45,988 nucleotides of DNA from Gammaproteobacteria bacterium (GCA_003645535.1 QNFP01000004.1:1-45988), one strand, 5' to 3'; shown: positions 1-45,458, counted from the stretch's first letter. Notes: generated by a model not told the origin, from the sequence alone. Made by a program: numbers and translations.

Positions 1-2886
1 GGGAACCTGGTGCAATATATCCAGCGGTATCTCAACACTTACACCATCTTCACTGTGACCGGGATCGAAGCGATAGCTGAGCCGGTAGTCTATATCTCCC
101 CAATGGATGACTTTGGGAAACTGCGCCTCCTCATGCTGGGTCGGCGCTTTATTTACCAATAGTTCACGGTTGATAAACAATAATCGAGGACTAGCCTTCT
201 CGGCAGTTCTTCGCCAGCGCTCAAAGGTCGGTAGACGCACCACGGCCAGAGGCACTCGTTGATCAGAAAACTGGTAGAGCACTGCATCGTCGGCAAGGAT
301 GTCGCGGCGACGCATGCGCTCCTCCAAATCATGGAAATGCGTAAGCAGGTCTGCATTGTGTCGCGCAAACTGCCCTCCGCCTGGCTTTTCTCTTCGGCGC
401 TTTCCGCCACTATCTCGGCTACCACTTCGACCACCGTTTTGGCCCCTGTTTGGGCCCCTGTTTGGGTCATTAATGGATTGAGCAGATTTCAAATACGCGC
501 CTTCGACCAAAGCAGCCTGAATGAAAATTTCTCTACACACCTTCGGATCAATAGTCCCATACCTGACCCTGCGCCGCTCTACGATAGTCAGGCCATAAAG
601 TGTCTGCTTTTCATAGGCCATGACCTGCCCATTACGGCTATCGTAATGTGGCTCGCTATAATTTTTTCTGACCAAATGGTCAGCTAACGCGGGTAACCAG
701 TCTGCATTGATTCCCGCATTGTGATGGCCATAAAGACGCGATGTTTCGATCAGCTCTGCACACATCACCCACTTAGGTGGTTTCGCCGCCAGTCCGGAAC
801 CGGGAAAAAGATAGAACTTGCGATTGCGCACGCCGTCATATTCTCGGGCCTCCTGCCGAAAGCCGACGTGGGCAAGCAAACCTGCTAACAACGCGCGGTG
901 AATATCGTCGTGGTCCACTTTATTCCTCTGCACATTGATGCCGATCTGCCGGCAGTCGTTGTGCAGCTGGTGATGCAGATCCCGCCATTCCAGCATCCGC
1001 ATGTATGAAACAAAGGATTTGCGGCAATATTTTGAAAATTGATTTCTTGAAAGCGCCTGTCGCTGCTCCTCAAAATGATCCCACAGATTTAATATACTGA
1101 CGAAATCTGAGCTCTTGTCTCGCCACTGTCGATGTTGCTGGTCGGCCGCCTCCCGCTTATCAGCAGGCCTTTCGCGAGGGTCCTGAATACTCAGGGCAGA
1201 CACGATTATCAACACCTCCCGGACACAGTTCTCTCGCTGTGCGGCGATCAGCATTGTTGCCAGGCGTGGGTCTACTGAAAAATGCGCCAACTTGCGACCA
1301 GTTGCCGACAGGCCTTCCTTTTTATCGACCGCCTTTAACTCTTTTAACAGGGCAAATCCATCGTTAACCTGGCGATTGTCCGGGGGTTCTAAAAACGGGA
1401 AGCGACGCACATCACCGATACGCAGGCGCAACATCTGCAAGATAACAGCGGCCAGGTTGGTGCGCAGTATTTCCGGCGTGGTAAATAACGGCCGTTGCTC
1501 ATAATCGTCCTGGCTGTATAACCGGATACAAATACCATCACTCAACCTGCCGCAGCGCCCGGCGCGTTGATTGGCGCTGGCCTGAGAAATAGGCTCAATG
1601 GGCAGTTGCTGGACTTTAGTCCGGTAGCTATAGCGGCTGATGCGTACAAGACCGGTATCGATAACATAACGTATGCCCGGTACCGTCAAAGATGTTTCAG
1701 CCACATTGGTCGCCAATACCACACGAATACCGCGATGGGGCTGAAAAATACGATTCTGCTCCGCCAGGTTTAAGCGTGCGTAAAGGGGCAGGATTTCCAC
1801 ATGGGGAAATTGACAACGGCGTAGACTCAATGCCGCTTCACGAATTTCACGCTCGCCGCTGAGAAAAACAAGTATGTCGCCTTTTTGGGGCAGGCCAAGT
1901 AACTCTTCTACTGCGGCGTTAATCGCTTCATTGACATCCCGATCCTCCAGCATTGGACGATAGCGATACTCGACGGGATAAGTGCGCCCGGACACCTGAA
2001 TGACCGGGGCTTCATCAAAATGCTTTGAAAACCGCTCTACATCGATAGTTGCCGAGGTAATAATAAGTTTCAGATCAGGACGCTGGGATAAAATCCGTTT
2101 CAAATAGCCGAGCAGGAAATCAATATTCAAGCTCCGTTCGTGAGCTTCGTCAATAATGATCGTGTCATAGCGGTTTAGAAAACGGTCGCGCTGGATGTCG
2201 GCCAGCAGTATACCGTCGGTCATTAATTTGATCAGCGTATGGTCGGTACTGTGATCCTTAAAACGCACCTGATAACCAACTGCTGCACCGAGTTTCACGC
2301 CAAGCTCATCGGCGATACGGCTGGCAACCGTGCGGGCGGCAATGCGCCGGGGCTGGGTATGAGCGATGAGGCCGGTGACACCGCGCCCCGCCTCAAGGCA
2401 TATTTTAGGTAATTGAGTAGTTTTACCAGATCCGGTTTCACCGGCTACGATGATAACCGGGTGCGCAATCAGCAATTTGCGAATCTCATCCCGCTTGCCG
2501 CTGATGGGTAACTCTTCAGGATAGGTGATCGCCGGTTTCTGCAGGCCGCGCATATGCGCCAACTGACAGGACTGTTCAATCTTCGTTTGAAGTTTTTCTA
2601 GTTGGGATTTTTTTTGCTGGGCTTTTTCTAAGTGGTGCTTTTCTGATTGGGCTATTTCTAATTGGGAAGGTTCTAATTGGGCAGGTTCTAACTGAGCTTT
2701 GTCCAATTGAGCTTTTTCTAATTGAGAAGAGCCCGGGGCTTGCGTAGAGCCCCGTCTCATCTGCCTGGAGAGTTTGTCGATTTCCCTTTTGAACCGATAA
2801 CGATCTCGGTTCATACAAGCCGACAGATGCTTTACAAGATCCCGGGGGTCAGCACTATCCCCCGCGGAATTATTTCTCTCCGTCAT
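1..2886 (-). CDS. hrpA: ATP-dependent RNA helicase HrpA (3' end outside window)
   Basis: DEAH-box RNA helicase of the HrpA family. The ORF track missed it because no stop lies inside the window: the frame is open from an ATG at 2886 to base 1, giving 962 codons. E. coli HrpA is about 1300 residues, so roughly the last quarter is missing. Visible parts are an N-terminal helical region, ITYPEELPISGKRDEI leading into Walker A GETGSGKTTQ (about residues 149-158), TQPRRIAART, the DEAH box IIIDEAHERS, the SAT motif and NQRAGRCGR, followed by the helicase-associated C-terminal region. Two oddities are in frame: a nine-unit pentapeptide repeat at residues 53-97 and a tetrapeptide repeat rich in Pro, Asn and Gly in the C-terminal half. 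The start follows a weak AGCAGG-like site. Identification is secure; only the exact start is uncertain. Confidence 0.93.
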   Translation of the reverse strand, partial: MTERNNSAGDSADPRDLVKHLSACMNRDRYRFKREIDKLSRQMRRGSTQAPGSSQLEKAQLDKAQLEPAQLEPSQLEIAQSEKHHLEKAQQKKSQLEKLQTKIEQSCQLAHMRGLQKPAITYPEELPISGKRDEIRKLLIAHPVIIVAGETGSGKTTQLPKICLEAGRGVTGLIAHTQPRRIAARTVASRIADELGVKLGAAVGYQVRFKDHSTDHTLIKLMTDGILLADIQRDRFLNRYDTIIIDEAHERSLNIDFLLGYLKRILSQRPDLKLIITSATIDVERFSKHFDEAPVIQVSGRTYPVEYRYRPMLEDRDVNEAINAAVEELLGLPQKGDILVFLSGEREIREAALSLRRCQFPHVEILPLYARLNLAEQNRIFQPHRGIRVVLATNVAETSLTVPGIRYVIDTGLVRISRYSYRTKVQQLPIEPISQASANQRAGRCGRLSDGICIRLYSQDDYEQRPLFTTPEILRTNLAAVILQMLRLRIGDVRRFPFLEPPDNRQVNDGFALLKELKAVDKKEGLSATGRKLAHFSVDPRLATMLIAAQRENCVREVLIIVSALSIQDPRERPADKREAADQQHRQWRDKSSDFVSILNLWDHFEEQRQALSRNQFSKYCRKSFVSYMRMLEWRDLHHQLHNDCRQIGINVQRNKVDHDDIHRALLAGLLAHVGFRQEAREYDGVRNRKFYLFPGSGLAAKPPKWVMCAELIETSRLYGHHNAGINADWLPALADHLVRKNYSEPHYDSRNGQVMAYEKQTLYGLTIVERRRVRYGTIDPKVCREIFIQAALVEGAYLKSAQSINDPNRGPNRGQNGGRSGSRDSGGKRRREKPGGGQFARHNADLLTHFHDLEERMRRRDILADDAVLYQFSDQRVPLAVVRLPTFERWRRTAEKASPRLLFINRELLVNKAPTQHEEAQFPKVIHWGDIDYRLSYRFDPGHSEDGVSVEIPLDILHQVP
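404..475 (-). repeat. 12-bp degenerate tandem repeat inside hrpA
   Basis: Six consecutive 12-bp units, best conserved as gggcccctgttt. On the coding strand they read in frame as PNRG-PNRG-QNGG-RSGS-RDSG, a flexible insert followed by a Lys/Arg-rich stretch. Outer units are strongly diverged. The insert lies in the C-terminal half of HrpA, well past the helicase core. Confidence 0.6.
2596..2730 (-). repeat. 15-bp tandem repeat (9 units) coding pentapeptides in HrpA
   Basis: Nine consecutive units of exactly 15 bp, for example ttctaattgggaagg followed by ttctaattgggcagg. In the hrpA frame each unit codes one pentapeptide of type [AS]QLE[KP], giving residues 53-97. The repeat sits in the N-terminal linker just before the ITYPEELP segment that precedes Walker A, where E. 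coli HrpA has a non-repetitive helical segment. The product should be charged and helical. Confidence 0.9.
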
Positions 2887-2932
2887 TACCTGCTAGCTAA
2901 ATAGTCGATAAATTACCTGGGAAATCAATCGA

Positions 2933-4108
2933 TCACTTGGTAAGAAGCGCCATACCTTCGTCGAGCCCGCCCAGGGTCAGTGGAAACATACGCCCTTCTA
3001 CCAACTCACGAACCCGCTGTATGGTTGGCGTGTGCTCCCAGTAGTCTTCTCGAACCGGATTTAGCCAGACCACTTTGTCGTAAATATCGGTTAAGCGTTC
3101 CATCCATATCGCCCCGGATTCCTTGTTGTAATATTCAACACTGCCGCCGGCACTTTCAATTTCATAGGGTGACATGGAAGCATCACCAATGAAGATAACC
3201 TTGTAGTCCGATGCATATTTATGGAAGACATCGTAGGTCTCGGTTTTTTCCTGAAAGCGTCGGAAATTGTCGCGCCAGACAAAGTCATAGAGCATATTGT
3301 GGAAATAAAAATACTCCAGATGCTTGAACTCGGTACGCGCCGCTGAAAACAGTTCCTCACAAACCTTCACGTAGGGATCCATCGACCCGCCAGCGTCAAA
3401 GAAGATCAATACTTTCACAGCATTGCGTTTTTCCGGCACCATTTTAATGTCGAGCATACCGGCATTTTTTGCAGTGCAACGAATGGTGTCATCCAGATCC
3501 AGCTCTTCCTCGCTACCAACACGAGTAAATTTACGCAAACGCCGCAAAGCTACCTTGATATTACGGGTACCCAGTTCAACGGAATCATCGAGATTAGCAT
3601 ATTCGCGTTTTTCCCAGACTTTGAGAGCTTTCTTTTGCTTGCTCTCTCCGCCGACGCGAACACCTTCGGGGTTGTAACCGTCATTCCCAAATGGGGACGT
3701 ACCCTGAGTGCCAATCCATTTATTGCCACCCTCGTGCTTGCCCTGCTGTTCTTTGAGTCGTTTTTTAAACTCCTCAAGTAACTTTTCGAGACCACCGAGG
3801 CTTTCAATTTTGGCTTTTTCCTCATCACTCAGGGATTTTTCAAATTCCGAGCGCAGCCAATCTTCGGGAATCAATGCGTCCAGAAAGTCATCGAGAGATT
3901 CCAGCTCTTCAAAATAGAGCGCAAAGGCGCGATCAAATTTATCGTAGTTGGTCTCATCTTTGACCATGCAGGCCCGCGACAGATAATAGAAGTCGTTTAT
4001 GCTAGCAAAGGCGATGTGCTTCTCAAGAGTCTCCAGCAGAGTTAACAACTCGTTAATGGAAACCGGCAGTCCGACTTTGCGCAGCCCATAGAAAAAATCT
4101 AATAGCAT
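2933..4108 (-). CDS. VWA domain protein (CoxE-like), partner of the MoxR ATPase
   Basis: 391-residue soluble protein with no signal peptide. The first 100 residues are helical, a Lys/Glu-rich linker follows, and the C-terminal half carries a von Willebrand A domain beginning KVLIFFDAGGSMDPY. The MIDAS motif reads DAGGS instead of canonical DxSxS, so the first Ser is Gly; I recall such variants in CoxE-like VWA proteins. The gene lies 19 bp downstream of a MoxR-type AAA ATPase on the same strand. That pairing is typical of systems in which the ATPase and VWA protein jointly remodel or insert a cofactor into a target. No target enzyme is adjacent, so the client is unknown. Confidence 0.85.
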   Translation of the reverse strand: MLLDFFYGLRKVGLPVSINELLTLLETLEKHIAFASINDFYYLSRACMVKDETNYDKFDRAFALYFEELESLDDFLDALIPEDWLRSEFEKSLSDEEKAKIESLGGLEKLLEEFKKRLKEQQGKHEGGNKWIGTQGTSPFGNDGYNPEGVRVGGESKQKKALKVWEKREYANLDDSVELGTRNIKVALRRLRKFTRVGSEEELDLDDTIRCTAKNAGMLDIKMVPEKRNAVKVLIFFDAGGSMDPYVKVCEELFSAARTEFKHLEYFYFHNMLYDFVWRDNFRRFQEKTETYDVFHKYASDYKVIFIGDASMSPYEIESAGGSVEYYNKESGAIWMERLTDIYDKVVWLNPVREDYWEHTPTIQRVRELVEGRMFPLTLGGLDEGMALLTK

Positions 4109-4127
4109 GTGCTTATCTTCCCTTCTA

Positions 4128-4970: not shown

Positions 4971-5165
4971 ATGGTTCCCCTAGCTGGATGATTGAATGAT
5001 TAGTATGAATAATTAGAAACAGTGTATTTTAGCGTTACCGCTGCATTGATTCCAACCCCTGGGCGATATCATTTGGATAAACCCCATACAATCAGCCTTT
5101 GCCGTAACTACGGCCCTGCTACCATTGGCGTTCATAAAATAAAATTTGGCAGTATTGTTACTCTT

Positions 5166-6710
5166 ATGAGGGATCAAACCATTCAAACCACCGATAACAC
5201 ATTCTTCGGCCATCCCCGTGGCCTTCTGGTTTGCTTTATGACCGAGCTTTGGGAGCGTTTCAGCTTCTATGGTATGCGCGCCTTACTCATTTTTTATCTC
5301 ACTGAACACTTCCTGTTTGGTGACGACAAGGCATTTCTGATTTATGGGGCGTATTCTGCACTGGTTTACGTTATGCCTGTCATTGGTGGCATTCTGGCAG
5401 ACCGTTACCTCGGCTCAAGAAAAGCTGTAACTTTTGGCGCTATCCTCTTGGTTATAGGGCATTTTGGCATGACACTGGAAGGCCCGCCCGCAACTGTGAC
5501 CGGTACGATAGTCGAGCGAGACCCCTTATATCTACAATTTTTCTATTTGTCTCTGGCATTTATCATTACCGGGGTCGGCTTCCTCAAAGCCAATATTTCC
5601 ACCGTTGTTGGTGCGCTATACGAGACCGATGACCGGCGCAGAGACGGCGGCTTTACAATTTTTTACATGGGCATAAATATCGGCGCCTTTTTTGCCTCAA
5701 TATTATGCGGATGGCTCGGCCAAACCTATGGTTGGGCCTACGGGTTTGGCCTTGCTGGCATCGGCATGTTGGTGGGTCTGGTTGTCTTCCTCCGTGGTCA
5801 GCCGCACCTCCAGGGCCGGGCTGATCCACCCTCGCCCGCATTGTTAGCAGAAAAGTTAGTGGGCGGCGTTAGTCGGGAAACTTCTATTTATTGCGGCGCT
5901 ATTGCCGGTGTATTTGTCATCTGGCAGTTAGTGCAACACCAGGCGCTGGTCGGCAGGGCCCTGATGGGCTTTGGAGGACTAATGCTCGTTGTCGTCGTTG
6001 CTTACTCTTTCCTTAAATGCGATCGCACCGAGCGCCAGCGCATGTTTGTCGCCTCAACACTTGTTCTTTTTTCGGTGCTGTTCTGGGCGCTTTTTGAACA
6101 GGCCGGCTCCTCGCTAAACCTGTTTGCCGATCGCTCGGTGGATCGGGTGGTCGCTGGTTACGAGATACCCGCATCGGTGTTTCAATCACTCAATGCGTTT
6201 TTTATATTCCTGCTGGCGCCGCTTTTTGCTTTGTTATGGACCTGGCTCGCCGCCAGAAACTGGGAGCCGTCAACTCCGATCAAGTTTGCTCTCGCTATCC
6301 TGCAGGTAGGTCTCGGCTTCCTGGTATTGGTTTTCGGTGCCCAAACAACTGGATATGGCGAACCAACCCCGCTGATCTGGCTGGTATTTATTTATCTGTT
6401 GCACACTACCGGCGAACTTTGCCTTTCCCCAGTGGGTCTCTCTATGATTACCAAATTAAGCGTGGCGCGGGTGGTGGGCATGATGATGGGTGTCTGGTTC
6501 CTGGCCTCAGCAGGCGCTAATTTTATCGCCAGTCAAATCGCCAGGCTGACCAGCGCAGAAACGCGAGAAGGCGAGGTGTTGGATCAAACAGCTGCATTAG
6601 CCCAAACCCTTGACGTCTATACGCAGGTGGGCTGGTTCGCGATCGGGGTCGCAGCGTTCCTGTTGCTGATCTCACCATTGTTACGTCGCGGCATGCACGG
6701 TGTTCATTAG
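5166..6710 (+). CDS. POT family proton-dependent oligopeptide transporter
   Basis: Inner-membrane proton:di/tripeptide symporter of the PTR2/POT (DtpA-like) family. The ORF track begins at 5022, but the family start is the ATG at 5166 (MRDQTIQTTDNTFFGHP); the upstream 48 residues look like translated intergenic DNA. The diagnostic ELWERFSFYGMRALL proton-coupling motif in helix 1 is present, as are ADRYLGSRKAV in the helix 2-3 loop and GVGFLKANISTVVGALYE in helix 4. The product of 514 residues with about 14 helices fits the family. The ribosome binding site before 5166 is weak. It probably imports small peptides, a role shared with the ABC importer at 13777-19026. Confidence 0.9.
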   Translation: MRDQTIQTTDNTFFGHPRGLLVCFMTELWERFSFYGMRALLIFYLTEHFLFGDDKAFLIYGAYSALVYVMPVIGGILADRYLGSRKAVTFGAILLVIGHFGMTLEGPPATVTGTIVERDPLYLQFFYLSLAFIITGVGFLKANISTVVGALYETDDRRRDGGFTIFYMGINIGAFFASILCGWLGQTYGWAYGFGLAGIGMLVGLVVFLRGQPHLQGRADPPSPALLAEKLVGGVSRETSIYCGAIAGVFVIWQLVQHQALVGRALMGFGGLMLVVVVAYSFLKCDRTERQRMFVASTLVLFSVLFWALFEQAGSSLNLFADRSVDRVVAGYEIPASVFQSLNAFFIFLLAPLFALLWTWLAARNWEPSTPIKFALAILQVGLGFLVLVFGAQTTGYGEPTPLIWLVFIYLLHTTGELCLSPVGLSMITKLSVARVVGMMMGVWFLASAGANFIASQIARLTSAETREGEVLDQTAALAQTLDVYTQVGWFAIGVAAFLLLISPLLRRGMHGVH

Positions 6711-6744
6711 GGATGCCTATTAGGGGTGCCTATTTAGTGTGTCT
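6706..6744 (+). repeat. 13-bp tandem repeat spanning the POT gene stop codon
   Basis: Units attagggatgcct, attaggggtgcct and atttagtgtgtct. The gene's TAG stop lies in the first unit, so the later copies are downstream and non-coding. Confidence 0.55.
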
Positions 6745-6789
6745 GGTTAATTCGCATCGATGGATTGCAGACAGAAACCTCGGGCAAAG

Positions 6790-7206: not shown

Positions 7207-7274
7207 AACCCCACGACGCTGTCATTGCCGTATATTTTTGCGCCTATATGCCGACTATATGCCGCCTATTACGC

Positions 7275-7334
7275 CCACTTCCCTTAAACCCGCTCTTACT
7301 AACCCCCTTCCGACTAAACCCCTTCCGGCTAAAC
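7275..7334 (-). repeat. 15-bp tandem repeat (4 units) at the ycgN stop codon
   Basis: Four 15-bp units; the two best are cccttccggctaaac and cccttccgactaaac on the plus strand. On the coding strand they read gtttagccggaaggg, so the TAG that ends ycgN is inside the first unit and the next copies repeat the same stop downstream. Confidence 0.8.
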
Positions 7335-7772
7335 CCAGTGTACGACGTGTTCCTCGAGGCTGTCCGGGTGCACGTATTGCTCCGAAATGACGCGCCCACT
7401 CACCGATACGCCCGCTTCGCGTACGCTCTGTGTAGAACCGGATACCAATGGGTGCCAGGAATGCAGTGGTTTGCCTTCGTGGCGCAAGCGATAAGCGCAG
7501 GTAGCCGGCAACCAGTCAACGGCATCGATATTATCCATGCTCAGCCGCAAGCAGTCTGCAACCTTTTGCAGGCGCTGGCCATAAGCCTTGCAGCGACATC
7601 GCTGTGTATCGAGCAAGTGACAGGCGACACGAGTAAAGACTATCTCACCACTATCAATATCTTCTATCTTTGCCAGACAGCACTTTCCGCAGCCATCACA
7701 CAGGGCTTCCCATTCTGACTCATCGAGCTCGGTCAGGGGTTTGTGCTGCCAAAATGGTGGGCGATCCATCAA
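7329..7772 (-). CDS. ycgN: YcgN/UPF0260 family cysteine-cluster protein
   Basis: 147-residue cytoplasmic protein of the UPF0260 (YcgN) family. It has the characteristic cysteine cluster CDGCGKCC near residue 25, followed by further cysteines in ACHLLDTQRCRCKAYG and CLRLS, and a C-terminal WLPATCAYRLRHEGKPLHSWHPL segment typical of the family. The cysteine spacing suggests metal or Fe-S binding, but no biochemical function is established that I know of. The start ATG overlaps the ycgL stop by four bases (ATGA), indicating translational coupling. Length is normal. The stop codon lies in a 15-bp tandem repeat. Confidence 0.93.
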   Translation of the reverse strand: MMDRPPFWQHKPLTELDESEWEALCDGCGKCCLAKIEDIDSGEIVFTRVACHLLDTQRCRCKAYGQRLQKVADCLRLSMDNIDAVDWLPATCAYRLRHEGKPLHSWHPLVSGSTQSVREAGVSVSGRVISEQYVHPDSLEEHVVHWV

Positions 7773-8050: not shown

Positions 8051-8084
8051 CGGCCGCTCACCTCCAGGTCATTAGCCGAACTGA

Positions 8085-9410
8085 TCATTCCGATTTGCCC
8101 GCCCCTCCCAGATCCAGATTGGAAACATAGCTCAGCAATTCATTACCTATAATTGTTTTGCGCCAGCTATTTTCCATAGTCGGGGGCAACTTTGCCTCAC
8201 CGGCAACCGCTGTATGCAGAAGATAGGTAAGATCGGTTTTGCGGGCCAGCATTTCTGGTGCCATTGTCAGTGCTCGCGCTTTATCCTGGACAATTTTCTT
8301 GCAGGTTTTTAGCGTGCCACCCTGCTCCTTCGGCACCGGTTTTGGTAAAAGTGTGGGCAAAAGTGCCAGATCTGTACTCAGCCCTTCTTCGACCAACGTT
8401 ACCAATTTATCGCCATAAGTTCGCACCACCCGAGGATGAATGCCATCCCCACCCCTGGATCGTGCACCTGATGACTTTTTTCCCGATATTTCCGACATTC
8501 CCGATGAGAGGAGTTGCCTGTCGCGAGGTTGCTTTATTGCAATCTGTAACAATTCCTTATCGGCAACGATCCACCCCCGGGGCCGATCTAATTTTCGCGC
8601 CTCTAGTTCCCGCCAGGTACACAGCGCCCTGAGAATCGCCAAACTTTGCCGATCCAGCTTCCATGCCCCCTTAACCCGCAGATAGTATTGCTCAACAGGC
8701 ACTTCCTGCTCTGCGCCCGCTAACAACGCTTTCATATCCTCCTGCAGCCAGCCTAAACGACCACATGACGTTAGCTGCTCATTTAACTTCGCGTATATCG
8801 CGCCCAGGTAATGAACATCTTCTACGGCGTAGCGTATCTGCGATTCAGACAGTGGCCTCCGCAACCAGTCAGAACGGGTTTCATGCTTTTTCAGCACAGT
8901 ACCTGCAATTTCTTTAACCAGGGCCTGATAACTTAGTGAAAAACCCAGCCCGATAAACGCGGCCGCTACCTGAGTATCAAATAGCGGCGTGGGCAATGCG
9001 CCGAGGGCAGTGCGCAACACTTCAAGATCTTCCGAGCAGGAATGAAACACTTTAATCACCCGCTCATCGACGAGTAAACCGACCAATGGCGCCAGCTCTT
9101 CAGCGGAAAATAACAGGGGATCAATCAGCCAGGTAGTCGTGCCATCACATAGCTGCACCAGGGCCAGACGGGGATAAAATGTATCGGTGCGAATAAATTC
9201 TGTATCCAGTGCTACCACATCGACTTGCTGTAACTGCTGCACCGCTAGCTGCAAAACTGCGGTAGTTTCAACCATTACCGGGTCAATAATCGCCGGATCA
9301 ATAACTTCCGAATCAATCATTACCGGGTCGACCTCAGTCGGATTAACCACTGCCGGATCAACGTCAGCCGGATCAACCATTGTCCGTTCAACCATTGTCC
9401 GTTCAACCAT
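8085..9410 (-). CDS. rnd: Ribonuclease D with repeat-derived N-terminal extension
   Basis: 3'-5' exoribonuclease that trims tRNA 3' ends. The DEDD exonuclease domain is clear: VALDTEFIRTDTFYPRLALVQL (first D and E), VFHSCSEDLEVL, FDTQVAAAFIG, and RYAVEDVHYL near the fourth acid. An HRDC domain follows (LAILRALCTWRELEARKLDRPRGWIV) with a Gly/Ser-rich insert. E. coli RNase D is 375 residues; this ORF is 441. Most of the excess is residues 2-46, made of 15-bp DNA repeats coding V-[ED]-[RP]-x-x pentapeptides. Three identical repeat copies each carry an ATG, so starts at 9410, 9395 and 9380 are equivalent, and the ancestral start may be the Met of MVETTAVLQ. First gene of the rnd-ycgL-ycgN operon. 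Confidence 0.92.
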   Translation of the reverse strand: MVERTMVERTMVDPADVDPAVVNPTEVDPVMIDSEVIDPAIIDPVMVETTAVLQLAVQQLQQVDVVALDTEFIRTDTFYPRLALVQLCDGTTTWLIDPLLFSAEELAPLVGLLVDERVIKVFHSCSEDLEVLRTALGALPTPLFDTQVAAAFIGLGFSLSYQALVKEIAGTVLKKHETRSDWLRRPLSESQIRYAVEDVHYLGAIYAKLNEQLTSCGRLGWLQEDMKALLAGAEQEVPVEQYYLRVKGAWKLDRQSLAILRALCTWRELEARKLDRPRGWIVADKELLQIAIKQPRDRQLLSSGMSEISGKKSSGARSRGGDGIHPRVVRTYGDKLVTLVEEGLSTDLALLPTLLPKPVPKEQGGTLKTCKKIVQDKARALTMAPEMLARKTDLTYLLHTAVAGEAKLPPTMENSWRKTIIGNELLSYVSNLDLGGAGKSE

Positions 9411-9447
9411 TGTCCGTTCAACGATAGTCCGTACAACGATAGTCCGG
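9268..9447 (-). repeat. 15-bp tandem repeat (12 units) at the rnd start
   Basis: Twelve consecutive 15-bp units, including three identical copies of tcaaccattgtccgt at 9373-9417. Similarity fades outward on both sides. The array straddles the annotated rnd start. Inside the gene it codes pentapeptides; upstream it continues without break into the 5' leader, so it also replaces or displaces the normal ribosome binding region. Confidence 0.92.
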
Positions 9448-9521
9448 TCGAATTTGCCGGAGCGACCGCCATTGGCGTGGCATCTGTTATATCATCCATA
9501 TCATGCCAGAGCCTGCTCACA

Positions 9522-12492: not shown

Positions 12493-12500
12493 AAAATCAT

Positions 12501-12605
12501 TAAACCCCGAACAATCGCACTCTGAATCATTGAACTATGAATAATTGAACTATGAATAATCGCACTTTGAATAACCGCACTCTGAATAACCGCACTCTGG
12601 GTTTT
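12501..12605 (-). repeat. 15-bp tandem repeat (7 units) upstream of dnaX
   Basis: Seven units of 15 bp, such as tgaactatgaataat (two identical copies) and cgcactctgaataac. On the dnaX strand the array ends nine bases before the start codon and occupies the expected leader. It contains in-frame stops relative to dnaX, so here the 15-bp period is not explained by coding. Confidence 0.85.
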
Positions 12606-13547: not shown

Positions 13548-13736
13548 CTAGTGCTAGTCCGCGTTAGCACACTAACAGGGACCATCCTGCAAAACCTTTC
13601 ACCTGCTCAGCTCGTGGGTTAGTATCGCGGCTGTCTTTTAGATAATGTTTTAGGTGATTTTTTCAGATACTGCTTAACTAAATTTTCAGGTGCAGTATTG
13701 GCTGCAACTTGCACAACTATTTGTAGCATCTCTACT

Positions 13737-13775
13737 AACCAGTACCTATAACCAGTACCGACAACCAGTGGTCAA
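13737..13775 (+). repeat. 13-bp tandem repeat just before the oppA start
   Basis: Units aaccagtacctat, aaccagtaccgac and aaccagtggtcaa, ending one base before the chosen ATG at 13777. The repeat occupies the ribosome-binding region, which has no clear Shine-Dalgarno sequence. Confidence 0.55.
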
Positions 13776-17358: not shown

Positions 17359-19026
17359 GTGGCCCTACTCGAAGTTAATAATCTCAGCACCTGGTTCCAT
17401 ACCCGCAATGGCGTGGTCAAAGCAGTTGATGATGTCAGCTTTTCGGTCGCCGAAGGTGAAACCCTGGCCATCGTTGGTGAATCAGGCTCCGGTAAATCAG
17501 TGTGTTGTTACAGCTTGCTCGGTTTGATTCCCATGCCTCCGGGCAAAATCGAAAGTGGCACTGCCCTGTTTAATGGCAGGGATTTACTGGCCTTATCCGA
17601 GCGGGAGTTACGTGGCATCCGCGGCAACGAAATCGCCACCATCTTCCAGGATCCCATGACCTCTCTAAACCCCTACCTGACCATCGGCGAGCAGCTTATT
17701 GAGCCGCTGATCTATCATCGGGACATGTCCAGAAAGAAAGCTCGCATTCGGGCCATAGAGTTGCTCGATGCCGTGGGCATCCCTCGGGCAGAACACCGTT
17801 TTGACAGCTACGCTTTTCAATTTTCCGGGGGCATGCGCCAACGGGTGATGATTGCTATGGCGCTGATTGCCGAACCTCGGCTGTTAATCGCCGATGAACC
17901 CACCACTGCCCTTGATGTCACTATTCAGGCGCAGACACTTAAATTGATCAGCGAATTACAAACTCAACGTAACCTCGCGGTTATTTTTATCAGCCACGAT
18001 CTCGCGGTAGTGGCGAACATTGCCGACCGGGTGGCGGTGATGAAAGACGGCAAGATCGTCGAAACTAACACAACGACGGCTATTTATAGCAAGCCTCAGC
18101 ACCCTTATACACAGACGTTGCTGAAGGCTATACCCGACGGCGGCAAGGTGCAGCAAGCCGATATAGCAGATACACCATTACTTGAAATTTGCCGATTAAA
18201 AACCTGGTTCAATATTTCTGGAAAGAAAAACACCAGGTCCGGAAAGAAAGACACCAGGAAAAAGTCTGACGGTTCAGCAAAAGGCAGCTCGGCAAATGAC
18301 CACACAGTAAAAGCTGTTGACGACGTGACCTTAACCATTCGCCGCCACGAAATCCTCGGTATAGTCGGCGAATCCGGATCCGGCAAATCAACTCTGGGTC
18401 GCTCCATTTTACAGTTGGTTAAACCTACTGGTGGTTCAGTCAAATATGGCGGCGACGAACTAACCACCCTCAGCAGACGACAAATGAAGCCTTACCGTCG
18501 CCGGATGCAGATGATCTTCCAGGATCCCTACGCATCGTTAAACCCTCGCATGAGTGTGTTTGATGCTCTCGCCGAACCTCTGCTTTACCATGGCCTGGCG
18601 ACTCGCAAGACAGTTTTGGCAGAGGTGCTGGCGTTAATGGACGACGTTGGCCTGGCTGCGGACTCCATACGCAAATACCCCCATGAGTTTTCTGGTGGTC
18701 AACGCCAGCGTATCGCCATTGGCCGCGCTATCGCCACCAAACCGGAATTCATTATCGCGGATGAACCCGTATCCGCACTGGATGTGACGATTCAGGCACA
18801 AATCCTCGAATTGATTTTGCAACTTGTCGACAAGCATAATCTCACTATGCTGTTTATATCCCACGACCTCTCAGTAGTGCGTTATATATGCGACCGAGTG
18901 GCTGTGATGCACCAGGGCAAGCTGATTGAAAGTGGTGCTACAGAAACACTGTGGCACCACCCTCAACAAAGCTATACGCAAAGTTTACTGGCGGCGGTGC
19001 CATCTTTGCAGGCTTCCCATAACTGA
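17359..19026 (+). CDS. Fused peptide ABC transporter ATPase (OppD-OppF / YejF-like)
   Basis: 555-residue protein with two complete ABC domains, equivalent to OppD plus OppF in one chain as in E. coli YejF. Each half has GESGSGKS, a signature FSGGMRQRV or FSGGQRQRI, a Walker [14 protein letters not shown] or [13 protein letters not shown], and FISHDL. The start is GTG at 17359 with AAGGA upstream; no ATG fits. The linker between the halves (about residues 285-315) is Lys/Ser-rich and contains a perfect in-frame heptapeptide duplication from a 21-bp DNA repeat. The stop codon lies in a 7-bp tandem repeat. It completes the SBP-permease-permease-ATPase operon. Confidence 0.95.
18217..18258 (+). 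repeat. 21-bp tandem duplication in the ABC ATPase linker
   Basis: tctggaaagaaaaacaccagg is followed directly by tccggaaagaaagacaccagg, 19 of 21 identical. It codes [14 protein letters not shown] in the linker between the two ATPase domains. Confidence 0.9.
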
Positions 19027-19073
19027 TTAGCCATAACTGATTACTGATTACTGATTACTGATTACTGATTACT
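19022..19073 (+). repeat. 7-bp tandem repeat at the ABC ATPase stop codon
   Basis: actgatt occurs once over the TGA stop, then after one divergent unit five times in direct succession (19036-19070). The stop codon is part of the repeat unit. Confidence 0.9.
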
Positions 19074-36217: not shown

Positions 36218-36757
36218 ATGGCAAACTCATTACAAGGTCAGTTACAAAAATCTGGTTTACTCACCGCAAAAAAGGCCAAACAGGTAACAAAGGACAAGCG
36301 CAAGCAGGATAAGATGCAGCGTAAAGGGCAGCAGCCTGTGGAGGATAACCTTAAGCAGCAGCTAGCTGAGAACAAAGCTGAGAAACGCTCGAAAGACAAA
36401 AGCCTCAATCAGCAGCAAAATCAAAAATCCCTGCGCAAAGCCCTGGCCGCACAAATTAAGCAATTGATTGAAATAAATGCTATTGCTGCGTCTGGTGACC
36501 AGCCATTCAACTTCACCGACGGCAAACACATCAAACGAATCTACGTTGACGACGAGCAGGTTGGCCGCCTGAGTCGGGGTGTTTTTACTATTGTTAAATC
36601 AGCTGACCGTTACGTCATTGTACCCACACCGGTGGCAGATAAAATCGCCCAGCGGGATCCCGAGCGCATCATATTCAAAGCGGAAAAAGAAGATAACACC
36701 ACGGACGCTGATGATCCTTATGCCGAGTATAAAATTCCTGATGATTTAATGTGGTGA
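36218..36757 (+). CDS. DUF2058 family protein
   Basis: 179 residues of the DUF2058 (YaiL-like) family. The ATG at 36218 begins MANSLQGQLQKSGLLTAKKAKQ, the family N-terminus. A long Lys/Gln-rich coiled region (DKRKQDKMQRKGQQP) follows, then the conserved QPFNFTDGKHIKRIYVDDEQ and SADRYVIVPTPVADKI. No enzymatic motif; the charge pattern suggests nucleic acid or ribosome association, but function is not established. TATAAT at 36182 could be its -10, although no good -35 pairs with it. Confidence 0.92.
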   Translation: MANSLQGQLQKSGLLTAKKAKQVTKDKRKQDKMQRKGQQPVEDNLKQQLAENKAEKRSKDKSLNQQQNQKSLRKALAAQIKQLIEINAIAASGDQPFNFTDGKHIKRIYVDDEQVGRLSRGVFTIVKSADRYVIVPTPVADKIAQRDPERIIFKAEKEDNTTDADDPYAEYKIPDDLMW

Positions 36758-36830
36758 GCAATTTCGCCATCAGTGCTAATTTGACCGGCGCTAATTTGGC
36801 CAGTATTGATATGACCAGCACTGATATGTT
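36754..36830 (+). repeat. 15-bp tandem repeat (4-5 units) after DUF2058
   Basis: Units cagtgctaatttgac, cggcgctaatttggc, cagtattgatatgac and cagcactgatatgtt at 36771-36830, with a weaker copy over the DUF2058 stop. Translated from the overlapping ORF it mimics pentapeptide-repeat protein (ANLTG-ANLAS), but it is better seen as DNA repetition. Confidence 0.8.
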
Positions 36831-39205: not shown

Positions 39206-39302
39206 TTACCAACAGCACAGACCAGCCGTTGTTGCTTTACCGGCAAATTCTCCCGCAACTTTTATCCCGAATTGAATAGTCGGGTAAACAGCAGAACATA
39301 CA

Positions 39303-39908: not shown

Positions 39909-40113
39909 GGGCCTCTGATTAAGTCTGGACGAAGCAGGTTGTAATTCAGAATATTCAGATTCACCAACAGTAGGCGCTTTTAGGCGAGGCGAAAATTGCG
40001 CGTAATAGCAAGCTATTGCGAAAATTTACACCAACAGTAGGCGCTATCAAGGCGACGAAGAAGCTCGATATTCTGTGTCCAAAATGCGAGTTCATGGCTT
40101 GATCAGAGGTTCC
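39908..40113. mobile_element. MITE-like non-coding element with long imperfect inverted ends
   Basis: A 206-bp segment. The left end GGGGCCTCTGATTAAG matches the reverse complement of the right end GGAACCTCTGATCAAG, and similarity continues inward to CAGAATAT (about two thirds identity over 50 nt). TTA flanks both ends, a possible 3-bp target duplication. Inside are two direct copies of CACCAACAGTAGGCGCT 67 bp apart, around an inverted AATAGC-AA-GCTATT. No ORF. The ends and size fit a non-autonomous transposable or intergenic repeat; family and copy number cannot be seen here. Confidence 0.7.
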
Positions 40114-40212
40114 TTAGCACCCGGCATCCACTAACCATGATTAATGAAAAAGTTTTATCCAGATGGTTTTAACGCTTTATATACAGTGCTTTAATTTATC
40201 AAAAAGCTACTA

Positions 40213-43200
40213 TCAGGAAACTTCAGATATACCGATACCATCATCCCGCAGCCACACATATAGCCCCGGTATAACGATCAAAGTCAAAACAGTCGAGGAA
40301 GCCAATCCAAATATCAGCGAAACTGCCATACCATGAAACATGGGGTCAGGCAGAATAAAAGCCGAGCCTGCCATACCAGCAATCGCCGTTAGAATAATCG
40401 GTTTAGCACGAATTGCTCCCGCCTCGATGGCCGCTTTGCGCATTGGCATGCCCTCACGGCGTTTAGCATGGATAAATTCAATTAACAAAATTGAGTTACG
40501 TACGACAATACCTGAAAGAGCAATTAAACCAACCGTGGAAGGCATGGAAAAAGTCGAGTCCATCACCCAGTGGCCAATGATAATCCCGGAAAAACCGAGA
40601 GGTACGGGCATCAATACCACCAGCGGTGTTATGAAGCTACCGAACTGCCCCACCACGAGAATATAAATGCCCAAAAGCGCGATCCCAAAGGCGACACTCA
40701 AATCTGTAAAAGTTTCATTGGTTACATCCCATTCACCCATCCACAACATAGAGGCTTTACTCACGTCTTCCGGTTGCCCTGAAAAACTCACTTCCAGTGA
40801 CTCCCCTCCCGGCCATTCCATGTCCTGTAAAATCCGTTTGACATCCCCCATAGCATAGACTGGTCCGTCTTTCGGCTCGCCCCGAATGCTAGCAGTGACC
40901 ATATCAGCGAAGTGACCATCCCGTCGGTAAATAGGATAGGAGGCTCTTTCGGTTGTCACTTCAACCACATCGCCTAACTCTCGGATTTCACCTGTTAAAG
41001 TCGATATGGGCGTGGACAATATCCGTTCACTGAGAAACAAAGATTCTTTGGGTTGCCGGACTACAACAGGAACCGGATTCCTGCCATCACCGCGATGGGA
41101 ATAACCCAGGCTAAGCCCACCCAGCAAGGCCGACAGGGTGTCATAGACAACGCCCTCTTCTACCTGATGAAACTCGAGGTTTTCCTGGTCAATAGAAATC
41201 CGTAAACGCATGGCCGGTTCACCAAAAGAATCATCGCTTTCAGTCAACTCGGGAACCTGATCAAAAGCCTGCCGTACCTTGCGTGCAACATGCCGCCGAG
41301 TTTCGGGATCCGGGCCATAGACCTCAGCCACCATGATATAGGGTGCCGGCGGTCCCGGCGGTGCTTCGACCAGTTCAATGGAGGTTTTATCGGGCATATC
41401 CAGGGCCTTCAATCGCGCCCTGACTTCCATGGCAATATCGTGGCTGGGCCGTTCACGCTCCCATTTTTTCGTGAGGTTAAGTCGCAATTCACCCTGCTCA
41501 GGTAGACCCCGCATATAATCCTGGCGCACCAGTCCGTAAAAGTTGTATGGACCTGCAGCTCCCGCATAGAGCTGCATGCTCTCTATTTGCGGTATATCCC
41601 CGACCAGATTAGCGGCATCCACCAGGACCCGCTCGGTCGCTTCCAGGGTCGAGCCTTCTGGCAAATCGAATAAAACCTGAACATCCTGCTTGTCATCAAA
41701 CGGCATAATTTTAAAAATCACCAAGCGGTAGTAAGGCATCAAAAACGTTAACAAAGTAAACACAACTACCGCCAACAGGGCCAGCTTTGCTCTGCCCGGC
41801 GTCAGCAACATAACACTTACAACTTTACGGTAATAGGCGCCGAATATACCGCCCTGGGCCACTTCCAGATCGGCCTCCGAGTCGGGAACCTGCTCCGCCC
41901 CCTCTTCAAGATGACTGGCGGTGACATCATCTTTCCCGTGCCGCAGTTTAAGCATCGCCCAGGGCACGACTATCAATGCCAATAGCAAGGAAAAAATCAT
42001 CGCCGCCGAGGCAGATATTGGTATCGGCCTCATAAAGGGGCCATTAAATCCAGTGCTATAGAGCATCGGTAACATAGCGGCCACCACAGTAAAGGTGGCA
42101 ATAATGGTCGGATTACCCACCTCGGCAACAGCATCAATAGTGGCCTCCTTCCAACTGCGGCCATTGAGCATCTTCCAATGTCTGGATATATTCTCGATCA
42201 CCACAATGGCATCGTCAGCAAGAATAGCGATAGCGAAAATAATACCGAACATAGTCAGCCTGTTAAGGCTGATATCAAGCAACCAGCAAACAAAGAATGT
42301 GAGCAAGACAGTCGCTGGAATAACCACCAGAATAACCAAACCCTCACGCCAGCCTAAAAACAGGGCCATGATGATCACAATGGCAGCGGTAGCCAGCAGC
42401 AAGTGGCCCATCAGTTCATTAGCTTTATGCTCAGCAGTGGCCCCATAATCCCTTGTCACTTCAACTTTCACTTCATCCGGGATCATGCGACCTCGGATCA
42501 GTTCCAGGCGTTTTAATACATCCTTGCTAATTTCAACACCATTGGCACCCTTGCGCTTGGCTATAGCCAGACTGACAGCAGACATACTTTTAAAGGTTTT
42601 GTTACCGTTTTCATCCTGCACCGGCAACATCTGCCGAACACTGTGATCATCAAGACTGGCGCCAGTGACTATCTTTGCCACATCACGCATATAAACCGGA
42701 CGGCCATCAAAAGTGGTAATCACCAGTAAGCCGATATCGGTGGCGCCTTGCAGGGTTTGTCCAGCAATGACGGTCATTGCCCTGTCGTCGTGACGCAGGC
42801 TACCGGTCAGGAAAGCCCGGTTGGCGTTGCGTACTTTTTCCACCACCTGATTTAGCGTCACACCATAGAGCGACAGTAGTTCGGGGTCGGGCTCGACGCG
42901 AATTTCCTTTGGATGGCCCCCAACGATGTAGGTAAGACCAACATCGTCGACTTTAATCAGCTCATGGTTTAATTCTTCGGCCAGCTCAGTAAGCATTTCC
43001 GTCGTCCATCGACCTTCATTGCCCGGATACGCTGACAGCGTTAATACGATGACGGCCACATCATCGATACTACGACCAATGACCAGAGGCTCAGGAATAT
43101 TCTGTGGTAGTCGGTATTTGTTGGCATCAATCGCGTCGTTAATCCGAGCGATAGCCGAATCGTCATCATGACCGGTATCAAAGCGGACGGTAATCGCAAG

Positions 43201-43485
43201 ACCATCATCACGGGTCATCGAGTAAATGTGTGCAACATTATCGATACCTTTAAGGATGTCCTCAAAGGGTTTGGTGACCAGTTCAACAATGTCCTCGGCC
43301 CTAAGTCCTGGCGCCGACACCAGGATATCGACGAAGGGCACTGTTATTTGAGGCTCTTCCTCGCGAGGCATACCAGATAACGCTATGCCACCTAGTACAA
43401 CGGCGATAACCAGAATTAAAGGTGTTAACGCAGATTGAACAAATGCCTGGCTAATACGCCCTGCTACGCCCAACGAAACGCTCAT
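40213..43485 (-). CDS. RND efflux transporter, inner-membrane pump
   Basis: 1090-residue pump of the AcrB/MexF-like RND family. N-terminal FVQSALTPLILVIAVVLGGIALSGMPREEEPQI is the first helix and loop. Helix 4 carries the proton-relay pair in AILADDAIVVIENISRHW. The second half repeats the fold (MPFDDKQDVQVLFDLPEGS, VGLIALSGIVVRNSILLIEF). About 12 helices and two large periplasmic loops. The gene overlaps the adaptor stop by four bases, so the pair is coupled. No outer-membrane channel gene lies nearby, so it probably uses a TolC-like protein from elsewhere. Substrate unknown. Confidence 0.94.
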   Translation of the reverse strand: MSVSLGVAGRISQAFVQSALTPLILVIAVVLGGIALSGMPREEEPQITVPFVDILVSAPGLRAEDIVELVTKPFEDILKGIDNVAHIYSMTRDDGLAITVRFDTGHDDDSAIARINDAIDANKYRLPQNIPEPLVIGRSIDDVAVIVLTLSAYPGNEGRWTTEMLTELAEELNHELIKVDDVGLTYIVGGHPKEIRVEPDPELLSLYGVTLNQVVEKVRNANRAFLTGSLRHDDRAMTVIAGQTLQGATDIGLLVITTFDGRPVYMRDVAKIVTGASLDDHSVRQMLPVQDENGNKTFKSMSAVSLAIAKRKGANGVEISKDVLKRLELIRGRMIPDEVKVEVTRDYGATAEHKANELMGHLLLATAAIVIIMALFLGWREGLVILVVIPATVLLTFFVCWLLDISLNRLTMFGIIFAIAILADDAIVVIENISRHWKMLNGRSWKEATIDAVAEVGNPTIIATFTVVAAMLPMLYSTGFNGPFMRPIPISASAAMIFSLLLALIVVPWAMLKLRHGKDDVTASHLEEGAEQVPDSEADLEVAQGGIFGAYYRKVVSVMLLTPGRAKLALLAVVVFTLLTFLMPYYRLVIFKIMPFDDKQDVQVLFDLPEGSTLEATERVLVDAANLVGDIPQIESMQLYAGAAGPYNFYGLVRQDYMRGLPEQGELRLNLTKKWERERPSHDIAMEVRARLKALDMPDKTSIELVEAPPGPPAPYIMVAEVYGPDPETRRHVARKVRQAFDQVPELTESDDSFGEPAMRLRISIDQENLEFHQVEEGVVYDTLSALLGGLSLGYSHRGDGRNPVPVVVRQPKESLFLSERILSTPISTLTGEIRELGDVVEVTTERASYPIYRRDGHFADMVTASIRGEPKDGPVYAMGDVKRILQDMEWPGGESLEVSFSGQPEDVSKASMLWMGEWDVTNETFTDLSVAFGIALLGIYILVVGQFGSFITPLVVLMPVPLGFSGIIIGHWVMDSTFSMPSTVGLIALSGIVVRNSILLIEFIHAKRREGMPMRKAAIEAGAIRAKPIILTAIAGMAGSAFILPDPMFHGMAVSLIFGLASSTVLTLIVIPGLYVWLRDDGIGISEVS

Positions 43486-44543
43486 TCTGCAGCCTTGCTT
43501 ATACCCGCGACAGGTTGCCCAGGTGCTTTGACAAGCACGTCACCCTCCCGCAAACCAGACAATATCTCGACTCCACCTTCAACCGCCTGACCAGGCTGAA
43601 CCACAACTTCTACACCCCGGGACAAATAAACATAGCTGAGACCGTAACGGCGGTGAAGGTACTCAGCCGCGATGACGAAAGCCTGTCGTTTGTCTGTGGA
43701 TACCCACACCCTGACACGCTCACCAATAAAAAAATCGCCGAGGCCCTCAACCGTCACATCGGCAACGACCCGGCCGTTATCGAGTTCTGGGTACACCTGA
43801 GTGATCACACCCTCTCTATAGGCTCGGTCCTCAGCTATAAAACTACTGTCAAGCATGCCCCGTTGGCCAACCAGTACAGTATCACCCTGTTTGATAAAAC
43901 GCGCATGGCGTTCAGGCAACATCAAGCGCAAAATATAGCTCTCAGCAGCTATGCTAGCAATCGCTTCACCCGGTAAAACCACCGAACCCTGGGTAATATT
44001 TACTTTCAGCACCCGACCGCTGGCAGGAGCCAAAACATCGCCTTCAATTTGCGCTTGCAGAATCACCCCCTGATCCGACTTCAATGCGGCAATATCTGCA
44101 CTGACCACATCGACCCTGGTCTGTGCCTCATCTAGCTTTGCCTCACTGATTTTCCCCCGCTTATACAGCTTCGATACCCGCTGTAAAGTTGTCTTCGCCA
44201 GTTGTAGCTGTGCTTCTAAAGAACGCAATTTTGAAGCCGAAGCTGCGATTTGTAGTCTCAGCTTTGGATCACGAACTCGCGCCAGTTTTTGGCCCGCTTC
44301 AACTGTATCGCCTTCATCAACTAACAGCTCGACCAATGTGCCGCCGATACGGGCACGAGCCAGGGTCACATCCACTGTTTGCACAGAGGCAAATAGTGAC
44401 TTCATATCATAAACAGGTTGACGTTTTACCAGCAGTTCAGTTTCTTCTGGCTTGGCTGCCTGAGCACAAACACCGAGATAAAACAGAGCAAATACACCGA
44501 TCAATAAACGGCCAAGTGCTTTTAGAAATTCAATATTAGACAT
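43482..44543 (-). CDS. RND efflux periplasmic adaptor (membrane fusion protein)
   Basis: 353 residues. Signal segment LGRLLIGVFALFYLGVCAQAA is followed by a barrel-sandwich lipoyl half (GTLVELLVDEGDTVEAGQKLARV), a coiled-coil hairpin (KLRSLEAQLQLAKTTLQRVSKLYKRG), the second lipoyl half (GDVLAPASGRVLKVNITQGSVVLPGE) and the beta-barrel and membrane-proximal domains. It ends with ILSGLREGDVLVKAPGQPV. It links the RND pump to an outer-membrane channel. First gene of the two-gene operon; no regulator gene adjoins it. Confidence 0.93.
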   Translation of the reverse strand: MSNIEFLKALGRLLIGVFALFYLGVCAQAAKPEETELLVKRQPVYDMKSLFASVQTVDVTLARARIGGTLVELLVDEGDTVEAGQKLARVRDPKLRLQIAASASKLRSLEAQLQLAKTTLQRVSKLYKRGKISEAKLDEAQTRVDVVSADIAALKSDQGVILQAQIEGDVLAPASGRVLKVNITQGSVVLPGEAIASIAAESYILRLMLPERHARFIKQGDTVLVGQRGMLDSSFIAEDRAYREGVITQVYPELDNGRVVADVTVEGLGDFFIGERVRVWVSTDKRQAFVIAAEYLHRRYGLSYVYLSRGVEVVVQPGQAVEGGVEILSGLREGDVLVKAPGQPVAGISKAAE

Positions 44544-44783
44544 AAATACCTTTATGTTTTACGTATTACCTTTAATTCCTGCACTACCACAACAAAGCCC
44601 ATAGCTGCAGTTCCAGAACCCCTGCTGTCGGGATCAGCTATTGATTAAACAAATATACCTGTGCTAGACGTGACTTACAGGTTTTTTTGATTGCTTAGAC
44701 TATCGTTTTAGCCCGTAATATAGCAATACCAAACCGCGTTAAATACAAAAAAACACTGGCAGAAAAACTGGGCGTATTTATTC

Positions 44784-45458
44784 ATGACCTCATCCATACC
44801 AAAAATAATTCATTATTTCGACTACAAAAGCCCCTATGCCTATCTTGCCCAGGAAGAAGTCTTTCGTCTCCACGTCGATACCGGCCAGAATGTCGAGTGG
44901 TTACCCCATACACTAGACATTCCCAGCTTTCTGGGTGCCGCAGAACTCGATGCTTCCGGCAACGACCTGATACAGACCCGCAATGCCCATCAGTGGCGAC
45001 GTGTTAAGTACTCTTATATGGATTGCCGCCGCGAAGCCAATCGTCGCGGCTTAACCCTTCGCGGTCCACGCAAAATATTTGACTCCTCAGTCGCGCATAT
45101 AGGGTTTTTATACGCCAAACAACATGGTGATTTCAAAAACTACCACCAGCTGGTTTTTGAGCAGTTCTGGCAGCGTAAACTGGATATTGAAGACCCAACG
45201 GCGATCCAGTCGGCCCTTCAACAATCCGGCATTGATGCCAATGGTTTTGTCAAATACCTGAGCAGAAACGGCCCCGATGAACTAAGACAAATTCAGCAAC
45301 ACGCCGAAGCCTCAGGTGTATTCGGCGTGCCCTCTTATCTAATCGGCGATGAGCTCTTTTGGGGTGGTGAGCACATCGGTCACATACGAGAGTTGTCTGG
45401 CCTGAAACCGTCTGGACTGGAACTGCCTGGCCTGAAACCGCCTGGCCTGGAACAGTAG
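44784..45458 (+). CDS. DsbA-family oxidoreductase / HCCA isomerase-like (kappa GST)
   Basis: 224 residues of the thioredoxin-fold 2-hydroxychromene-2-carboxylate isomerase and kappa-class GST group. The active region is IHYFDYKSPYAYLAQEEV, with the Ser that replaces the CxxC of true DsbA. Helical insert residues WRRVKYSYMDCRREANRRGL and the later GVFGVPSYLIGDELFWGGEH cis-Pro motif are typical. The last 20 residues (after RELS) consist of GLKPS-GLELP-type pentapeptides encoded by four 15-bp repeats that end right at the stop codon; family members end near the HIGHIRE segment. Substrate unknown. Confidence 0.9.
   Translation: MTSSIPKIIHYFDYKSPYAYLAQEEVFRLHVDTGQNVEWLPHTLDIPSFLGAAELDASGNDLIQTRNAHQWRRVKYSYMDCRREANRRGLTLRGPRKIFDSSVAHIGFLYAKQHGDFKNYHQLVFEQFWQRKLDIEDPTAIQSALQQSGIDANGFVKYLSRNGPDELRQIQQHAEASGVFGVPSYLIGDELFWGGEHIGHIRELSGLKPSGLELPGLKPPGLEQ
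45396..45455 (+). repeat. 15-bp tandem repeat (4 units) at the 3' end of the DsbA-family gene
   Basis: tctggcctgaaaccg, tctggactggaactg, cctggcctgaaaccg and cctggcctggaacag, in frame as SGLKP-SGLEL-PGLKP-PGLEQ. The TAG stop follows the last unit directly. Confidence 0.9.

What the first reader, a model, noticed from the sequence alone, without database searches (positions are those of the whole stretch)
2596..45455. Window-wide class of 15-bp phased, locus-specific tandem repeats at gene boundaries
Six loci carry short tandem arrays with a period of exactly 15 bp: 2596-2730 (9 units), 7275-7334 (4), 9268-9447 (12), 12501-12605 (7), 36754-36830 (4-5) and 45396-45455 (4). Units share no consensus between loci, so this is not a dispersed element. 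In three places the array is coding and in three it is not, so codon phase alone cannot explain the period. All but the hrpA array lie within a few tens of bases of a start or stop codon. Further arrays of period 7, 12, 13, 14 and 21 bp occur at 404, 6706, 13737, 18217, 19022, 24638 and 26761. This density is far above what I would expect in an ordinary bacterial chromosome and suggests a duplication process with a preferred 15-bp step, tolerated mostly at gene edges. I know of no described system that does this.
Basis: partly seen in the sequence, partly recalled or inferred. Interest (0 to 1): 0.85.

Follow-up and report, generated by a model that had tools for sequence, protein, structure and literature searches.

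The report
Genome-wide 12-16-bp tandem duplications, mode 15
This marine bacterium's DNA contains, at hundreds of places between genes and at some gene ends, a local stretch of about 15 letters copied head to tail several times; comparison with sister species shows that single local segments grew into arrays, which points to a DNA-copying habit of the lineage rather than a new genetic element.

Summary
All six period-15 arrays are present (one weak). In a 1.17-Mb sample of the same genome (Porticoccaceae draft, 578 contigs) I found 168 short tandem arrays. Outside genes their periods form a narrow peak at 12-16 bp (13,16,24,29,12 arrays), mode 15. The frame-neutral periods 13/14/16 occur at 48 per Mb, against about 4 per Mb pooled in other gammaproteobacteria (P about 1e-15). 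One congener (G004) shows the same peak; samples of other congeners and most family members do not. So the refined claim is 'a 12-16-bp step', not 'exactly 15'. Arrays are purged from genes (3.8 vs 44 per 100 kb) and are only slightly nearer gene edges than random intergenic DNA. Sister-species alignments show birth from local sequence: the dnaX leader differs from G004 by exactly 6 x 15 bp; the DsbA-like C-terminus is a multiplied GLK tail; one neighbouring array differs by exactly 2 x 15 bp between two congeners. Junctions show little microhomology and no clear motif; Ku is absent. Best reading: a lineage-specific mutational bias followed by slippage. It resembles the 'constant size, variable sequence' bacterial repeats known at 20-21 and 52 nt, in a size class I did not find described.

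The parts
2593..2724 (-). 15-bp array, about 9 units, in frame in hrpA (N-terminal linker): SQLEKAQLDKAQLEPAQLEPSQLEIAQSEKHHLEKAQQKKSQLEK; no comparable array in hrpA of the relatives read
   Evidence: TRF; orthologue comparison; HrpA-type helicase/DUF3418 domains
7260..7336 (-). 15-bp array that begins at the last codons of ycgN (CxxCxxCC protein, 7329-7772 minus); its units repeat the GTT-TAG end of the gene; no array after ycgN in G004 or UBA12305
9268..9446 (-). 15-bp array of about 12 units between recR and rnd, forming the rnd N-terminal extension (MVERT units, several in-frame ATGs); spacing is 168-216 bp longer than in relatives
12501..12605 (-). 15-bp array (7 units) in the dnaX 5' leader between a shared GGGCCGTATAATT and the start codon; exactly 90 bp (6 units) longer than in G004
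36782..36828 (+). weak 15-bp array just after the stop of a DUF2058 gene
   Evidence: TRF score 45, 68% matches; gene
45397..45453 (+). 15-bp array (4 units) coding the C-terminal tail SGLKP-SGLEL-PGLKP-PGLEQ of a DsbA-like protein; relatives end ...GLKK or ...GLEK
6706..6734 (.). 13-bp array at the 3' end of the POT/PTR2 transporter gene
13736..13769 (.). 13-bp array, 2.6 copies, upstream of an SBP_bac_5 gene
436..466 (-). 12-bp array, 2.6 copies, inside hrpA coding sequence

Best explanation
The arrays are products of a lineage-specific mutational bias. Step 1: a local segment, mostly 12-16 bp, is copied once in tandem. Step 2: once two copies exist, ordinary replication slippage adds and removes whole units and homogenises neighbours. 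Step 3: selection removes most arrays from genes and leaves those in spacers, leaders and in-frame at flexible termini or linkers, where mostly multiples of 3 survive. Shown here: the size peak, local origin, unit-wise differences between species, and purging from genes. Inferred: that the arrays are mostly neutral, and the molecular reason for the 12-16-bp step. I favour nascent-strand misalignment during replication or gap repair with a polymerase-imposed loop size, because Ku is absent; fill-in of staggered nicks is the main alternative.
For: Size peak: exact self-matches of 9 bp or more at offsets 11-17 number 13,49,26,48,77,29,14 against a control of 5.5 per offset. Periods 13/14/16: 56 in 1.17 Mb vs 8 in 1.84 Mb of controls, P=1e-15; G004 15 in 0.33 Mb, P=9e-8; bootstrap 34-64 per Mb vs 0-17.5 in the order sample. 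Local birth: dnaX leader own vs G004 differs by exactly 90 bp, with the shared 13-mer GGGCCGTATAATT 143 vs 53 bp from the ATG; DsbA-like tail multiplied from GLKK; gap lengths 60 and 90 bp longer than in G005 and G001. Unit gain/loss: G005 vs G001 differ by exactly 30 bp inside one array with 91%/83% identical flanks. Stepwise growth: unit identity falls with separation (rnd 0.75 to about 0.57; dnaX 0.77 to 0.33). Purging: 44.1 arrays per 100 kb outside called genes vs 3.8 inside; 29 of 33 coding arrays have a period divisible by 3. Purely tandem: exact 12-18-bp repeats fall to background beyond about 30 bp offset.
Against: Two-copy junctions show little homology (21 exact cases: 8 with 0, 7 with 1, 2 with 2, 4 with 3-7 extra bases), less than classical slippage between pre-existing direct repeats would leave, so step 1 is not textbook slippage. 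No repair-gene difference was found that explains why only some genomes show the peak. Neutrality was not tested; an array in the dnaX leader could affect expression. Copy-number change within a population was not observed.
Confidence: 0.66

Rival explanations
1. Homology-independent duplication by paired nicks 12-16 bp apart, strand-displacing fill-in and rejoining, as in a target-site duplication without an insert.
For: Junction homology near chance; narrow size window; no clear boundary motif, only a mild A/T preference at unit ends.
Against: No Ku in this or 22 related genomes, while the control rings in Bacillus subtilis, so classical end joining is unavailable; no excess of 12-18-bp direct repeats around inserts.
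Confidence: 0.15
2. Selected function: arrays keep a 12-16-bp spacing because a protein polymerises on them or because their RNA acts, as proposed by Subirana and Messeguer for 20-21- and 52-nt repeats.
For: Constant size with variable sequence; one array lies in the dnaX leader; one hexamer (AGTACC) occurs in 7 of 96 units vs 0.6 expected.
Against: No motif shared by most units; unit size differs between congeners at one locus (13 vs 14 bp); arrays absent at orthologous sites in relatives; no palindromic excess.
Confidence: 0.1
3. Footprints of a mobile element or integrase with about 15-bp target duplications.
For: Long, size-limited duplications; divergent Cas1 matches exist in the genus.
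Against: Units are head to tail without inserts; no spaced 12-18-bp repeats; arrays grow stepwise; no sequence mark at the boundaries.
Confidence: 0.03
4. Codon phase or protein repeats alone (pentapeptide-like repeats), plus chance.
For: Three of six window arrays are coding; other gammaproteobacteria show periods at multiples of 3.
Against: Most arrays lie outside genes with periods 13, 14 and 16; none in Markov controls; 0.02 per window in codon-shuffled controls.
Confidence: 0.03
5. Assembly artefact of a metagenome draft.
For: Draft with 578 contigs; arrays are enriched at contig ends (7 of 67 vs 20 of 3000 random windows).
Against: Units are diverged, in frame inside genes, and the same peak appears in the independent, less fragmented G004 assembly. 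Contig ends sharing one unit fit breaks at real long arrays.
Confidence: 0.03

Closest known systems
Constant-size, variable-sequence tandem repeats of bacteria (Subirana and Messeguer; PMC8161180, and its reference 3, which was not held and not read)
   Same: One size class dominates, units differ between loci, mostly non-coding, species-specific and patchy, only partly conserved between relatives.
   Different: Published sizes are 20-21 and 52 nt; here 12-16 with mode 15. Many arrays here have only 2-3 copies, below their four-copy cut-off, and no short sequence is common to most units.
Tandem repeats of archaeal Borg elements (PMC9879509)
   Same: Recently formed, locus-specific arrays in intergenic DNA and in frame in ORFs; unit number varies; coding units divisible by 3 while intergenic units are mostly not.
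   Different: Borg repeats were defined as perfect with at least 3 units, are A-rich and lie on extrachromosomal elements; here a bacterial contig, median identity 0.94, narrow size mode.
Heptanucleotide long simple sequence repeats (Mrazek 2007, as cited in PMC4679880)
   Same: A preferred repeat length proposed to reflect interaction of the repeat with DNA polymerase.
   Different: 7 nt, not 12-16 nt; my detector reduces arrays to their shortest period.
Short tandem duplications in eukaryotes (Pol alpha-primase action at break ends, PMC8355091, abstract only)
   Same: Small local tandem duplications thought to start at breaks.
   Different: Needs eukaryotic machinery; no Ku here.

Membership tests
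Constant-size, variable-sequence bacterial tandem repeats | one repeat size dominates the genome | tested here: met
   12-16-bp peak, mode 15, sharp fall at 17
Constant-size, variable-sequence bacterial tandem repeats | the size is 20-21 or 52 nt | tested here: not met
   few arrays at 20-21 and none at 51-53 in own sample
Constant-size, variable-sequence bacterial tandem repeats | unit sequence variable between loci | tested here: met
   only 6 similar-unit pairs within 3 mismatches, 2 of them contig-end pairs
Constant-size, variable-sequence bacterial tandem repeats | short characteristic sequence present in most repeats of a species | tested here: not met
   best non-AT-rich hexamer AGTACC in 7 of 96 units
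Constant-size, variable-sequence bacterial tandem repeats | patchy among related species | tested here: met
   present in own, G004, probably G016; low in samples of G002, G003, G006-G010 and others; some samples are small
Borg-type tandem repeats | perfect units, at least 3 copies | tested here: not met
   30 of 99 arrays perfect; median copy number 2.6
Borg-type tandem repeats | coding units divisible by 3, intergenic units mostly not | tested here: met
   29 of 33 coding arrays; outside genes 13, 14 and 16 are common
VNTR / minisatellite | unit number varies between close strains | tested here: inconclusive
   varies by whole units between species; no strains of one species available
Slippage between pre-existing direct repeats | duplicated unit flanked by several bp of homology | tested here: not met
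   15 of 21 exact two-copy cases have 0-1 extra matched bases

The most novel reading that the evidence does not exclude
This lineage carries an active duplication process with a built-in step of 12-16 bp that needs almost no sequence homology and no Ku, a bacterial mutational signature not described before, which continually makes new spacers, leaders and protein tails.
Probability: 0.25. Interest if true: 0.75.

Novelty: new variant of a known kind. Interest (0 to 1): 0.5.

Why it matters
Why some bacteria have tandem repeats of one fixed size but no common sequence is an open question. Here a different size class appears, and sister species catch single units turning into arrays at alignable sites. 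That makes 'mutational step' versus 'functional spacing' testable. It also shows a route by which leaders and protein termini grow in 5-residue steps.

Tried and rejected
Chance: Markov and codon-shuffled controls. Detection-threshold artefact: exact-match spectrum from 9 bp with distant-offset control. Loss of PolA 5' nuclease: weak match in G000 looked suspicious, but polA there lies on a short contig and is cut by its end and G004 has an intact one with the same peak. Ku-based end joining: absent. Target-site duplications around inserts: none in excess. Boundary motif, palindromes, purine asymmetry: none strong. Shared short motif: only AGTACC in a minority. An A-family polymerase frame of 1559 aa in G000 was followed as a possible cause; it reads as a phage-type polymerase with an intein and G004 gave only one polA match. 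My gene caller is crude (E. coli called 80% coding), so 'outside genes' includes some missed genes.

Full report
What was checked. TRF on the window returns the six period-15 arrays reported, one of them weak (36782-36828, 68% matches). My own self-alignment detector finds 11 tandems in the window; 100 control windows with codon-shuffled genes and Markov spacers gave a mean of 0.02 and at most 1.

Where it comes from. The window is contig C4 of a 4.15-Mb draft genome in 578 contigs. The nearest named records by RecR are Porticoccaceae MAGs. Five congeners and many family and order genomes are held.

Genome-wide test. I sampled 1.17 Mb of the same genome, 0.33 Mb of congener G004, 0.18 Mb of four other congeners, 0.40 Mb of the family, 0.39 Mb of the order, 1.16 Mb around recR in other gammaproteobacteria, and 0.10 Mb of E. 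coli. Own genome: 168 arrays, 14.4 per 100 kb; outside called genes 44 per 100 kb; inside 3.8. Outside genes the periods run 11:5, 12:13, 13:16, 14:24, 15:29, 16:12, 17:5. G004 shows the same shape with mode 14. The order sample has 3.0 arrays per 100 kb and no peak; other gammaproteobacteria show mainly multiples of 3. Because 12 and 15 can be inflated by codon phase, I compared only 13/14/16: 48 per Mb in own, 45 in G004, 4.4 in pooled controls, with block bootstrap intervals 34-64, 24-64 and, for the order sample, 0-17.5. A threshold-free view, exact matches of 9 bp or more at each offset, gives the same peak. G016, another genus of the family, may also have it (5 arrays of 12-16 bp in 20 kb), so the trait looks patchy; the samples of G001, G002 and G005 are only 30-34 kb each.

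Birth from local sequence. In the dnaX leader the window and G004 share GGGCCGTATAATT, then 21 bases, then CCCAGAGT; after that the window has seven related 15-mers and G004 one (CAGAGTCTAATAATT). The distance to the ATG differs by exactly 90 bp. The DsbA-like protein ends ...GLKK or ...GLEK in three congeners and ...SGLKPSGLELPGLKPPGLEQ here. Just downstream, G005 and G001 differ by exactly 30 bp inside one 15-bp array, flanked by DNA 91% and 83% identical. HrpA carries about nine AQLEK-like units in a linker with no detected array in orthologues. After ycgN the array repeats the segment that holds the stop codon, and G004 and UBA12305 have none. At one other locus three congeners each carry an array of related units, but of 13 bp in one and 14 bp in two. 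Relatives also carry different arrays in the same spacers: L036 a 15-bp array upstream of dnaX, MOLA455 (L040) a 14-bp and G001 a 16-bp array at the recR-rnd junction. This is repeated, independent formation.

How it grows. In the rnd and dnaX arrays neighbouring units are most alike and similarity falls with distance, as expected for stepwise slippage; hrpA shows this less clearly. Among arrays of 12-17 bp outside genes, 30 of 99 are perfect and the median identity is 0.94, so fresh and decayed arrays coexist.

How it starts. Exact two-copy cases carry few extra matched bases at the junction (21 cases, 15 with 0-1), somewhat more than chance but little for classical slippage. The boundaries show no clear motif, and similar repeats separated by an insert are not in excess. 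Ku is absent in all 23 genomes searched. PolA is intact in G004. I therefore rank misalignment of a nascent strand with a size-limited loop first and staggered-nick fill-in second; neither is shown.

Gene edges. Arrays are removed from genes; 29 of 33 coding arrays keep the frame. Within spacers they are only slightly nearer to gene edges than random positions (median 99 vs 163 bp, p=0.025), so no special targeting of edges is needed.

Assembly. Seven of 67 contig ends carry an array, against 20 of 3000 random windows; two pairs of contig ends share the same unit. Long arrays probably break the assembly, so the counts are minimum values.

Comparison with the literature. Subirana and Messeguer described bacterial tandem repeats of constant size and variable sequence, with only two sizes, 20-21 and 52 nt (PMC8161180). 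The present case matches in kind but fails their size and their shared-short-sequence features. Borg repeats (PMC9879509) share recent independent origin and frame selection in ORFs. Mrazek's 7-nt preference was ascribed to polymerase contact (cited in PMC4679880). I found no paper on this size class or on Porticoccaceae repeats, within an open-access library only.

Verdict. Real, quantifiable, lineage-specific and partly explained: a new size class of a known kind, most likely a mutational bias. The cause of the 12-16-bp step is unknown.

Noticed in passing
window 19017-19073: Heptamer array ACTGATT x 5.4 just after an ABC transporter gene, starting with two TAACTGA motifs; close to the TAACTGA repeats of Beggiatoaceae, but TAACTGA itself is not in excess in the window.
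   Followed up: partly
L265 (G000:C226): A 1559-aa frame holding a phage-type family-A DNA polymerase interrupted by an intein-like insert (CLQKGTLVQTREGYRP...VIHKN).
   Followed up: partly
L150 17605-17812 and L152 16311-16420 (G004): A 36-bp repeat containing CGCGAGCTTCGCG sits at two contig ends in opposite orientation; not of the 12-16-bp class.
   Followed up: no
window 9373-9417: The rnd array repeats ATG GTT GAA CGG ACA three times in frame, so the number of possible rnd start codons changes with unit number.
   Followed up: partly
L128 start and L211 end; L210 start and L217 end: Pairs of contig ends share the same array unit (AAATACCGAGACTTT; CCCTAACTATTAG), so these contigs may adjoin across long arrays.
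   Followed up: partly
G004:C43, G004:C45, G001:C257, G000:C102: Divergent Cas1 matches of about 325 aa in the genus; fragmentary in G000.
   Followed up: no
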